Of a DNA stretch of 33,362 nt, positions 13 through 18,281 are shown in pieces. Positions within the stretch are counted from its first letter, which is position 1, and each line of letters starts with the position of its first letter. A program made the position numbers and the translations under genes. Under the pieces are notes generated by a model. It made no database searches. It was not told the DNA's origin and was given only the letters and a program-made list of their open reading frames with translations. Source of the stretch: an uncultured bacterium (GTDB taxonomy: Bacteria > Cyanobacteriota > Vampirovibrionia > Gastranaerophilales > Gastranaerophilaceae); NCBI GenBank assembly GCA_902795965.1, contig CADBNI010000038.1, positions 1 through 33,362 on the forward strand, in the 5' to 3' direction.

Positions 13-89
13 ACCCCTCACCCGAATTTCTAATATTCGAGCAAGCTCTCATATTGAAATTCTACCCTCTCCCGCAAGGGGCGAGGGGT
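13..89. repeat. Compound palindromic intergenic repeat
   Basis: Outer arms at 13-23 and 79-89 are complementary at 10 of 11 positions (acccctcaccc against gggcgaggggt). Nested inside is a second imperfect hairpin, 24-42 with 45-62, which carries gaatttc/gaaattc ends. A third hairpin, ccctctccc (65-73) with gggcgaggg (79-87) around a short loop, shares the right outer arm, so the folds are mutually exclusive. The C-rich/G-rich arms resemble a palindromic repeat common in many bacterial genomes, from memory. No T-run follows, so a terminator role is unsupported. No gene is seen in 1-257. Confidence 0.6.
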
Positions 90-16041: not shown

Positions 16042-17024
16042 CCACAACACTCGTAACCGGCGGTGCGGGATTTATAGGAAACTGCTTTATAAGATTGTAT
16101 CTGAAAAAACACCCGCAAGATAAAGTAATCAACCTTGACGCACTTACTTACTGCGGAAATTTGGAAAATCTTGATGACGTCAAAGACAATCCGAATTATA
16201 CTTTCGTACACGGCAATATCTGTGACGGGAAATTGGTGCGCGAACTTGTCGAACAAGCTGATACAGTCGTAAATTTTGCAGCAGAATCACACGTTGATAA
16301 TTCGATTAAGCACCCCGAAATCTTTGTAGAAACAAACGTTCAAGGAACATTAAATCTCCTGCAAGCATGCAAAGAATTAGGTATTGAAAGATATTTGCAG
16401 GTTTCGACAGATGAAGTGTACGGAACTTTAGGAAAAACAGGCTATTTTTACGAAACAACTCCGCTTGCGCCAAACAGCCCTTATTCCGCAAGCAAAGCGG
16501 GAGCAGATATGCTCGTCAGAGCTTATCACGAAACATACAAGCTCCCGACACTTAACACAAGATGTTCAAACAACTACGGACCTTACCAATATCCCGAAAA
16601 ACTTATACCGTTCTTTATTTCTCAACTCTTAAAAGGTGAAAAAGTTCCCGTATATGGTGACGGATTGAATGTTCGCGACTGGTTATACGTCTATGACCAT
16701 TGCGAGGCAATAGATACGGTTCTTCACAAAGGCAAAATCGGCGAAGTCTACAATATTGGCGGACATAACGAAAAAACTAACCTTGAAATTACGCACCTTA
16801 TCCTTGATGCAATGGGAAAAGACGAAAGCTCAATAAAATATGTAGAAGACAGGTTGGGACATGACAGACGCTATGCAATTTCCAACGATAAAATTACCGC
16901 GGAATTGGGCTGGAAACCTTCCATAACTTTTGAAGAAGGGATAAAACTCACTATTGATTGGTATTTGAATAATCAGGAATGGATAAATTCCATCGAAAAT
17001 AAAAAACGAGGTATGGAGGTATAG
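16038..17024 (+). CDS. rfbB: dTDP-glucose 4,6-dehydratase
   Basis: RfbB (RmlB) oxidises and dehydrates dTDP-glucose to the 4-keto-6-deoxy sugar using bound NAD, the second step to dTDP-rhamnose. The 328-residue extended-SDR protein has GGAGFIG near residues 8-14, STDEVYG near 123 and the catalytic Tyr-Lys pair in YSASKAG near 149. RCSNNYGPYQYPEKLIPFF follows. The last four residues before the stop (GMEV) and the stop itself are encoded by the left inverted repeat of an inserted element, so the original C-terminus was probably slightly different. Confidence 0.95.
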   Translation: MTTTLVTGGAGFIGNCFIRLYLKKHPQDKVINLDALTYCGNLENLDDVKDNPNYTFVHGNICDGKLVRELVEQADTVVNFAAESHVDNSIKHPEIFVETNVQGTLNLLQACKELGIERYLQVSTDEVYGTLGKTGYFYETTPLAPNSPYSASKAGADMLVRAYHETYKLPTLNTRCSNNYGPYQYPEKLIPFFISQLLKGEKVPVYGDGLNVRDWLYVYDHCEAIDTVLHKGKIGEVYNIGGHNEKTNLEITHLILDAMGKDESSIKYVEDRLGHDRRYAISNDKITAELGWKPSITFEEGIKLTIDWYLNNQEWINSIENKKRGMEV

Positions 17025-17040
17025 ATGTATAGAGGTATAG
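17007..17040 (+). repeat. Left inverted-repeat arm of the IVP-type element
   Basis: A 34-base arm made of GAGGTAT-type units. It encodes the last codons and stop of rfbB, and contains the AGAGG site (17031-17035) nine bases before the ATG of the four-helix-bundle gene. Pairing with the distal arm in RNA would bury that site. Confidence 0.75.
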
Positions 17041-17044
17041 CTTT

Positions 17045-17401
17045 ATGTATCAAAAATTAAAAATTTGGCAAAAATCATTAATTCTTATTAAAGAAATATA
17101 TAAATATGCTGATAAATTACCTAAAAATGAAGAGTATAATTTAAAAGCACAAATTAAAAGAGCAATAATATCAGTAACATTAAATATAGCAGAAGGCAAA
17201 TGTCGAAAGACATCAAAGGATTTTGCTCATTTTTTAAATGTTGCATCAGCTTCATTATCTGAAGTTGAATGTATATTGTTAATATGTGAAAGTTTAAATT
17301 ATTTTAATGTTGATACAAAATTGTATAATGATATTAAATCTTTAAACAGGCAAATAAACGCTTTATGCACAAAATTAATAAAGGAAACAAAATATGAATA
17401 A
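17045..17401 (+). CDS. Four-helix bundle protein (23S rRNA intervening-sequence protein family)
   Basis: A 118-residue, strongly helical basic protein. The opening YQKLKIWQKSLILIKEIYKY, the central SVTLNIAEGKCRKTSKDFAHF and SEVECILLICESL are typical of the S23/IVP four-helix-bundle family (PF05635, TIGR02436). Relatives occur inside 23S rRNA intervening sequences and, as Avd, with diversity-generating retroelements, where Avd binds nucleic acid. No reverse transcriptase, template repeat or rRNA is present here. The gene is more AT-rich in codon use than the flanking rfb genes, supporting separate ancestry. Its end overlaps the rfbD start by eight bases. Biochemical function is unknown for most members. 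Confidence 0.9.
   Translation: MYQKLKIWQKSLILIKEIYKYADKLPKNEEYNLKAQIKRAIISVTLNIAEGKCRKTSKDFAHFLNVASASLSEVECILLICESLNYFNVDTKLYNDIKSLNRQINALCTKLIKETKYE
17380..17385 (+). promoter_or_regulatory. rfbD ribosome binding site supplied by the inserted element
   Basis: AAAGGA lies eight bases before the rfbD ATG at 17394, inside the four-helix-bundle coding region. It shows that current rfbD translation starts from element-derived sequence. Confidence 0.6.
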
Positions 17402-18281
17402 TACTAATTCTATACCTCCAGACCTCCAGACCTCTATACCTCGTATTTTGGTTACGGGCGCAAAAGGCATGTTGGGGCAGGATTTATGCCCGATATTGGA
17501 AGATAGCGGATATGAAGTTATTGAAACTGATGTCGATACCCTTGATATCACGGATTTTGAATGTGCAAAAAAAGTTTTGACGGAGCAAAAACCCGATATA
17601 GTAGTGCATTGTGCCGCATATACAAATGTCGATAAAGCGGAAGAAGACATAGAAACCGCAAGGCTGATAAATTCCAAAGGTACGGAAAATTTAGCAAAAA
17701 TTTGTGCGGAACTTGATATTACACTTGTTTATATTTCAACGGATTACGTGTTTGACGGAACAAAAAATGAGCCGTACAAACCCGATGATACCCCAAATCC
17801 GATTAATAACTACGGTTTAACAAAACTTGAAGGAGAATTGGCGGTTCAAGAGTATTGCAAAAAGTATTATATAACAAGGACTTCGTGGTTGTACGGTCAT
17901 CATGGCAAAAACTTTGTTGAAACAATGATTTCTCTTGCAGACAGAGCGGAACTGAAAGTTGTTGATGATCAAACAGGTTGTCCTACCTGGACTTGCGAGC
18001 TTGCAAACGGAATTGTAAAACTGCTTGATGGCAAACCGTACGGAATTTATCACGTATGCGGAAGCGGATTTACAACTTGGTACGGCTTTGCAAAAGAGAT
18101 ATTTAAAATATATTTGTCATTGCGAGGAGGCGAAGCCGACGTAGCAATCCCATTAACCCCCTGCACTACATCAGAATTTCCCCGTCCCGCAAAACGTCCG
18201 ACATACAGTGTTATGGACAATGACGGTATTTGCAGAAAATGGCAATCCGCCTTAAAAGATTATTTAACGTTGAGAGATTAA
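17394..18281 (+). CDS. rfbD: dTDP-4-dehydrorhamnose reductase
   Basis: RfbD (RmlD) performs the final NAD(P)H-dependent reduction to dTDP-L-rhamnose. The 295-residue SDR has GAKGMLG near residues 22-28, STDYVFDG near 123 and the Tyr-Lys pair in YGLTK near 140. TSWLYG is followed by [13 protein letters not shown] near the C-terminus. Two insertions stand out. Residues about 5-16 are encoded by the right arm of the inserted IVP-type element, ahead of the usual ILVTGAKG start. Residues about 241-253 ([13 protein letters not shown]) are encoded by a palindromic repeat placed in frame in a surface-loop region. All core motifs remain, so the enzyme is probably functional. Confidence 0.93.
17410..17443 (-). 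repeat. Right inverted-repeat arm of the IVP-type element
   Basis: This 34-base arm is complementary to 17007-17040 at 28 positions. It is translated as part of RfbD, giving [12 protein letters not shown], which is not part of the normal RfbD fold. Confidence 0.75.
18114..18151. repeat. In-frame palindromic repeat inside rfbD
   Basis: Begins tttgtcattgcgag and ends gtagcaatccc. Arms attgc (18119-18123) and gcaat (18144-18148) enclose a small ggc-gaa-gcc hairpin (18129-18137). It matches, from memory, the widespread bacterial palindrome of the form GTCATTGCGAG...GCAATCC. Here it is read through as protein sequence without a stop. Confidence 0.75.

What the first reader, a model, noticed from the sequence alone, without database searches (positions are those of the whole stretch)
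18114..18151. A second, unrelated palindromic repeat inserted in frame within rfbD
The gtcattgcgag...gcaatcc palindrome is read through as [13 protein letters not shown] between FAKEIFKIY and the conserved EFPRPAKRP block. In-frame intragenic palindromes are known in Rickettsia (RPE elements). Here the same operon carries two different tolerated elements, one of them inside an enzyme, which makes rfbD an unusual insertion-permissive spot.
Basis: partly seen in the sequence, partly recalled or inferred. Interest (0 to 1): 0.6.

Follow-up and report, generated by a model that had tools for sequence, protein, structure and literature searches.

The report
Mobile DNA hairpins inside enzyme loops
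In a gut bacterium of the group Gastranaerophilales, a short repeated DNA hairpin has landed in frame inside a sugar-making enzyme and become part of a surface loop, and sister species carry different repeats in the same loop; similar events hit the same loops of three other enzymes.

Summary
A 35-nt palindromic repeat (18116-18150) is read in frame as residues 241-253 of RfbD; full palindromes of this type occur 9 times in the genome (control 0). Relatives' record titles place it in Candidatus Gastranaerophilales. Most relatives have a shorter loop without it. Three relatives (two congeners, one of another genus) carry an apparently unrelated CCCTC..GAGGG palindrome in the same loop; on a 101-protein tree the four repeat-bearing loops need four gains. 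A model (pLDDT 90) puts the segment between a helix and a strand. It gives 13 residues but nets +8, so it overwrote native residues. The same unit sits in frame in RlmD-like, SpoU, PrmA and GlcF-like genes, and in PrmA, RlmD and GlcF congeners again carry different repeats in the same loops. It works like Rickettsia palindromic elements and resembles CGTC-type REPs, but two tested features of those (stem/loop size, CCA tail) are not met in this copy. In-gene REPs, and different REPs at about one site of Xanthomonas recB, are published, so the kind is known; recurrence of unlike families in the same loops of four enzymes examined is the new part. No mobilising enzyme was identified.

The parts
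18116..18150 (+). REP-like palindromic unit GTCATTGCGAG...GCAATCC; preceded by T, giving the tag TGTC at 18115-18118
18119..18123 (+). left arm ATTGC of the outer stem
   Evidence: fold
18144..18148 (+). right arm GCAAT of the outer stem
   Evidence: fold
18129..18137 (+). inner variable hairpin GGC-GAA-GCC
   Evidence: fold; inner part differs between genomic copies
18114..18152 (+). codons 241-253 ([13 protein letters not shown]) read from the element; loop 244-253 between helix 229-243 and strand 254-257 in the model
17394..18281 (+). rfbD, dTDP-4-dehydrorhamnose reductase, 295 aa (RmlD_sub_bind 327.6 bits); the only full-length match in the genome
17405..17456 (+). right arm of a 52-nt imperfect inverted repeat, encoding part of the RfbD N-terminal extension (residues 1-12 have pLDDT below 50)
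17045..17398 (+). 23S rRNA-intervening-sequence-type protein gene (PF05635) between rfbB and rfbD; context, not part of the element

Best explanation
It is one copy of a dispersed, non-autonomous REP-like palindrome that entered rfbD in frame and is kept because its roughly 13 residues lengthen a surface loop between a helix and a strand without breaking the enzyme. Shown: it is repeated in the genome; the gene is open; most relatives have a shorter loop; unlike palindromes occupy the same loop in three other genomes, and the same happens in three more enzymes. Inferred: entry was by copy-in of a repeat, accompanied by replacement of a few native codons; in-frame, stop-free insertions survive only in a few tolerant loops, which explains most of the recurrence. 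An older insert may also relax the loop and so favour later replacement (inferred from RlmD, where five related species all have a longer loop, four of them with identifiable repeats of different types). The mobilising machinery is not known: the genome has no detectable Y1 (RAYT/IS200) transposase. No benefit to the host is shown, and that the loop is solvent-exposed is inferred from its place in the model.
For: Palindrome 9 against 0 control, 76 against 14 for the tag; 44 units with a 3' arm in 37 places, one of them (C29) probably a chance match. Loop lengths; inserts at the loop in the 101-protein alignment. Survey: 4 of 383 family genomes have a long loop by pattern, all four with repeats; 6 of 383 in the order sample with a slightly different gap, the two extra (G013, G263) being AT-rich without a recognised repeat. 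Four gains on the tree; close sisters without insert: G032 (92% identity to G021) and G028 (89% to G009). CCCTTGAGGGAGAGGG is itself repetitive: G000 68, G009 67, G300 32, G021 5, G013 0, controls 0-1. Model with helix-loop-strand, closest fold 1vl0, a solved RfbD orthologue. Other hosts. Same-loop recurrence: PrmA, RlmD, GlcF. The units are open in 2-6 of six frames (40 distinct units). No Y1 transposase in G000.
Against: No strain pair with a clean filled and empty rfbD site and target duplication was found; the G021/G032 junction (93.5% nt identity) is a replacement of about 15-20 nt rather than a simple insertion. Two of six long loops (G013, G263) have no recognised repeat. G009 and G300 share nearly the same insert, with similar 3' flank, so horizontal transfer of the loop is not excluded. 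hRUG901 has a 46-aa insert elsewhere in RfbD (position 169) and G009 an RlmD insert at position 405, so not every insert goes to the shared loop. Enzyme activity is not tested.
Confidence: 0.82

Rival explanations
1. Landing-pad turnover: a first repeat opens the loop, and later repeats insert into or recombine with the remnant, so recurrence reflects where repeats go, not only what selection tolerates.
For: In RlmD five related species (G000, G013, G023, G027, G029) all have longer loops at one position, with respectively a GTCATT[GA]CGAG dimer, no recognised repeat, a GTCATTCTGAACTTGTTTCAGAATCT-like unit, a GTCATTCTGAGC-type dimer and two C/G-rich palindromes (presence alone needs 2 changes for 6 rows). 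In PrmA G009 has a CCCTC composite followed by a GTCATTGCGAG-type unit.
Against: In RfbD and PrmA the close sisters of several carriers have ordinary short loops, so no earlier insert is visible there.
Confidence: 0.3
2. Target-sequence preference: the elements choose a DNA motif present in these loops.
For: Four of the six long RfbD loops (G009, G013, G021, G300) have TATAA just before the insert or at the matching position; G000 has TATAT and G263 neither.
Against: The families look unrelated in sequence, and flanks of other CCCTC copies show no common motif by eye; target sites in the four genes differ.
Confidence: 0.1
3. Selected new peptides: the inserts add a useful surface feature (binding, oligomer contact).
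For: Recurrence in the same loops; several hosts (RlmD, SpoU, PrmA) modify rRNA or ribosomal protein by family.
Against: Inserted peptides differ in sequence and frame between species; most relatives lack them.
Confidence: 0.06
4. Ordinary loop divergence that happens to look palindromic, or a MAG artefact.
For: The genomes are MAGs; the window alone does not make the 11-mer significant.
Against: Genome-wide copies against controls; similar insertions in separately assembled genomes; the gene is intact on both sides.
Confidence: 0.02

Closest known systems
Rickettsia palindromic elements (RPE)
   Same: Short dispersed palindromes read in frame inside conserved protein genes; predicted to be compatible with protein fold (PMC10969869, passages read; Ogata 2000 and 2002 cited there, not held)
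   Different: RPE are described there as about 150 bp; this unit is 35 nt, in another phylum, and unlike repeat types share one loop
CGTC-tagged REPs (Di Nocera and others 2013, PMC3733652; abstract passage, section 15, first part of the discussion and other passages read; author name recalled)
   Same: TGTC/CGTC tag, stem starting with AT, intragenic copies, no dedicated transposase; includes RPE-4 and RPE-6; different REPs at about one site in recB of two Xanthomonas species
   Different: This copy has a 5-bp outer stem with a separate inner hairpin and tail CCC; the paper lists CGTC repeats in five phyla, without Cyanobacteria
Bacterial MITEs
   Same: Non-autonomous, dispersed, sometimes fused in frame with genes (PMC10969869, passages read)
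   Different: No terminal-inverted-repeat and target-duplication structure shown for the single unit

Membership tests
CGTC-tagged REP | CGTC (or TGTC) tag at one end | tested here: met
   rfbD copy TGTC; 41 of 44 units TGTC or CGTC
CGTC-tagged REP | stem begins with A-T pairs | tested here: met
   ATTGC/GCAAT
CGTC-tagged REP | stem 8-9 bp, loop 4-5 nt | tested here: not met
   5-bp outer stem, unpaired stretches, inner 3-bp hairpin
CGTC-tagged REP | 3-nt tail, mostly CCA | tested here: not met
   rfbD copy has CCC after GCAAT; 27 of 44 units read AATC-TCA, 9 read AATC-CAG
CGTC-tagged REP | frequent opposite-orientation dimers | tested here: inconclusive
   7 of 37 places are opposite-orientation pairs; the paper's head/tail definition was not checked
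CGTC-tagged REP | no associated transposase | tested here: met
   0 Y1_Tnp matches in G000; other transposase classes not tested
RPE | described sequence family of Rickettsia, about 150 bp | tested here: not met
   35-nt unit, Gastranaerophilales; RPE sequences themselves were not compared
RPE | in-frame location inside protein genes | tested here: met
MITE | target-site duplication | tested here: inconclusive
   no clean empty rfbD site; junction with nearest relatives is a replacement

The most novel reading that the evidence does not exclude
Certain enzyme loops in Gastranaerophilales are recurrent landing pads through which many unrelated palindromic repeat families turn over, so that genomes keep rewriting surface peptides of housekeeping enzymes from repeat DNA; the rfbD loop is one of them.
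Probability: 0.35. Interest if true: 0.72.

Novelty: new variant of a known kind. Interest (0 to 1): 0.58.

Why it matters
In-gene REP and RPE elements have been known since 2000, but how they survive inside enzymes is mostly argued from single cases. Here sister species offer natural replicates: the same loop with no insert, with one repeat family, and with another. That makes tolerance, target choice and turnover separable with sequence data and simple enzyme assays, and shows a route by which mobile repeats supply new protein segments.

Tried and rejected
Chance or native loop: rejected by genome counts and relatives. RAYT mobilisation in this genome: no Y1_Tnp match in G000; 6 of 33 congeners have one, none of them G000, G009 or G021. 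Literature: the 11-mer GTCATTGCGAG as text gave 8 papers, which from titles and abstract starts look unrelated; Gastranaerophilales+repeat+palindromic gave 9, which look unrelated in the same way; Melainabacteria+REP sequences gave 0; repetitive extragenic palindromic / in-frame insertion / surface loop gave 7 papers, none on in-gene REPs from the listing. Ogata 2002 is not held.

mis-oriented three loci (L043, L047, L065); their rows there are invalid and were replaced. The order survey drew largely the same genomes as the family survey and is not an independent sample. In one search, 32 of 76 tag-like places were dropped because no 3' arm was found by my rule or the contig ended. In the repeat check three of 15 inserts (RlmD of G009, RlmD of G013, second GlcF site of G029) had no hit in other held loci; the G009 and G029 ones are called repeats only because they are palindromic by eye (the fold of the G009 insert is).

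The chance calculation is a rough yardstick with windows chosen after seeing the data. Counting every different repeat as an event, 11 of 13 events outside G000 lie within about 6 codons of a site used in G000; tree-only counting gives 8 of 10; counting only inserts with an identified repeat gives 9 of 10. For RfbD alone, 3 of 4: 4e-4 and 4e-3. The assignment of events to these counts was made by hand.

Full report
What is there. The unit GTCATTGCGAG...GCAATCC occupies 18116-18150 on the + strand within the rfbD ORF 17394-18281, and is read as residues 241-253. RfbD is an RmlD-family protein (327.6 bits) with solved relatives (best 1vl0, 3e-73; fold match TM 0.86/0.90). It is the only full-length match in this genome; the second match is the neighbouring dehydratase. 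The residues invariant in a 41-sequence alignment include G22, G25, G28, Y140 and K144; that these belong to the nucleotide-binding and Y-x-x-x-K motifs is recalled.

A genome-wide repeat. The pattern has 9 matches against 0 for the control, and the tag with one mismatch 76 against 14. Requiring a 3' arm leaves 44 units at 37 places, 7 of them opposite-orientation pairs; 38 of 44 carry TGTC and 3 CGTC. One of the 44 (C29:62101) sits in an ordinary-looking ORF and is probably chance. By my reading units at 10 places lie in frame in ORFs of 269 aa or more with further sequence on both sides: RlmD-like, SpoU, GlcF-like, RfbD and PrmA, each with Pfam matches on both sides of or across the unit (five places); an ORF of 327 aa without a Pfam match (one); and four prepilin-like ORFs in which the units lie upstream of the N-methylation motif (four; these could be untranslated if the start lies further down). 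The remaining places are intergenic, in small ORFs, or not assigned.

Relatives at the rfbD site. Record titles of relatives name Candidatus Gastranaerophilales. In 383 genomes of the family 283 have an rfbD match at 1e-60. Loops between EIF and FPRPA have 16 residues in 73 of 82 distinct sequences; those of 22 or more are six (20 loci did not fit that motif and were covered by the alignment). In the alignment of 101 distinct proteins, inserts of 4 or more residues at this loop occur in G000 (this element), G009 and G300 (PSPLEGEGWGEG, from a CCCTC..GAGGG palindrome), G021 (LSLSQGEG.., another such palindrome), G013 (YKKLSK, no repeat recognised) and G263 (KIYEKP, none recognised). A pattern for long loops found 4 of 383 genomes in the family sample and 6 of 383 in a largely overlapping order sample with a slightly different gap. 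The CCCTC palindrome is repetitive in G000 (68), G009 (67), G300 (32) and less so in G021 (5). On the tree, the four repeat-bearing rows need four changes, and all six long loops five. Junctions against close sisters show replacement of a short native stretch rather than clean insertion.

Structure. AlphaFold2 with 41 sequences: pLDDT 90.4, helix 229-243, coil 244-253, strand 254-257; the block 241-250 averages 71; residues 1-12 are below 50. The element therefore lengthens a helix-strand loop and supplies the two residues before the strand where relatives have the nearly invariant V-N. Solvent exposure was not computed.

Other enzymes. PrmA, 30 genomes of 33 matched and 30 rows aligned: at one loop, G000 has a dimer of this element; G018, G030 and G022 a CCCTC composite; G009 a CCCTC composite plus a GTCATTGCGAG-type unit; 25 rows have no insert. 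Presence needs four changes on the tree. RlmD, 32 of 33 matched and 30 rows aligned: one loop holds a dimer of this element (G000), a GTCATTCTGAGC-type dimer (G027), two C/G-rich palindromes (G029), a GTCATTCTGAACTTGTTTCAGAATCT-like unit (G023) and a CCCTCC palindrome without hits elsewhere (G009); G013 has a longer loop without a recognised repeat; G009 has a further insert at position 405. The consensus of the GTCATTCTGAAC type is recalled; its match to other held loci is. GlcF, 33 of 33 matched and 30 rows aligned, one of them partial: the first loop has a dimer in G000 and a repeat-like segment in G027; a second site has a remnant shared by G000 and G027 and a different, palindromic segment in G029. 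Alignments to solved RlmD and PrmA relatives break at the insert. So all four enzymes examined across relatives (RfbD, PrmA, RlmD, GlcF) show unlike repeats in a loop used by G000; the genes were chosen because G000 has an insert there, so this is not a random sample. SpoU and the other hosts were not examined across relatives.

How it works. Shown: repetitive element, in-frame coding, recurrence by other repeats. Inferred: copy-in by an unknown route, survival by tolerance of the loop, possible later turnover. The units are often open in several frames, which makes in-frame survival easier. No Y1 transposase was found in G000, in line with the published lack of a dedicated transposase for CGTC repeats (PMC3733652, passages).

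Known background. PMC3733652 (section 15, first part of the discussion, and passages including parts of the abstract) describes intragenic REPs in several species, equates RPE-4 and RPE-6 with CGTC repeats, suggests that insertions may be neutral in flexible linkers or loops, and reports different REPs at about the same site in recB of two Xanthomonas species. PMC10969869 (passages) summarises RPE. The general kind is therefore known; I found no report of it for this group in the searches named in Tried and rejected.

Noticed in passing
window 16994-17456: A 23S-rRNA-IVP-type gene between rfbB and rfbD is flanked by 52-nt inverted repeats (77% complementary) with 8-nt iterations; rfbD starts beside the right arm. 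18 of 134 rfbD loci held (duplicates included) have an IVP-like match nearby.
   Followed up: partly
L139 (hRUG901), RfbD position 169: A 46-aa in-frame insert flanked by direct repeats of about 22-25 nt (ATAGCGCTxGCCGATGTGAAxCCGGA), with internal palindromes; a possible duplication at insertion.
   Followed up: partly
L038, L177, L178, L199: Four prepilin-like ORFs of this genome carry units of this repeat in the leader before the N-methylation motif.
   Followed up: partly
window 65-80 (-) and other contig ends of the genome: Many contigs end close to a CCCTTGAGGGAGAGGG-type repeat, which suggests that these repeats break the assembly.
   Followed up: no
L202:262-2256:-: A glycosyl hydrolase family 38 ORF holds a GTCATTCCGAG-type palindrome in frame (HSEQSEKSVSETARND).
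   Followed up: no
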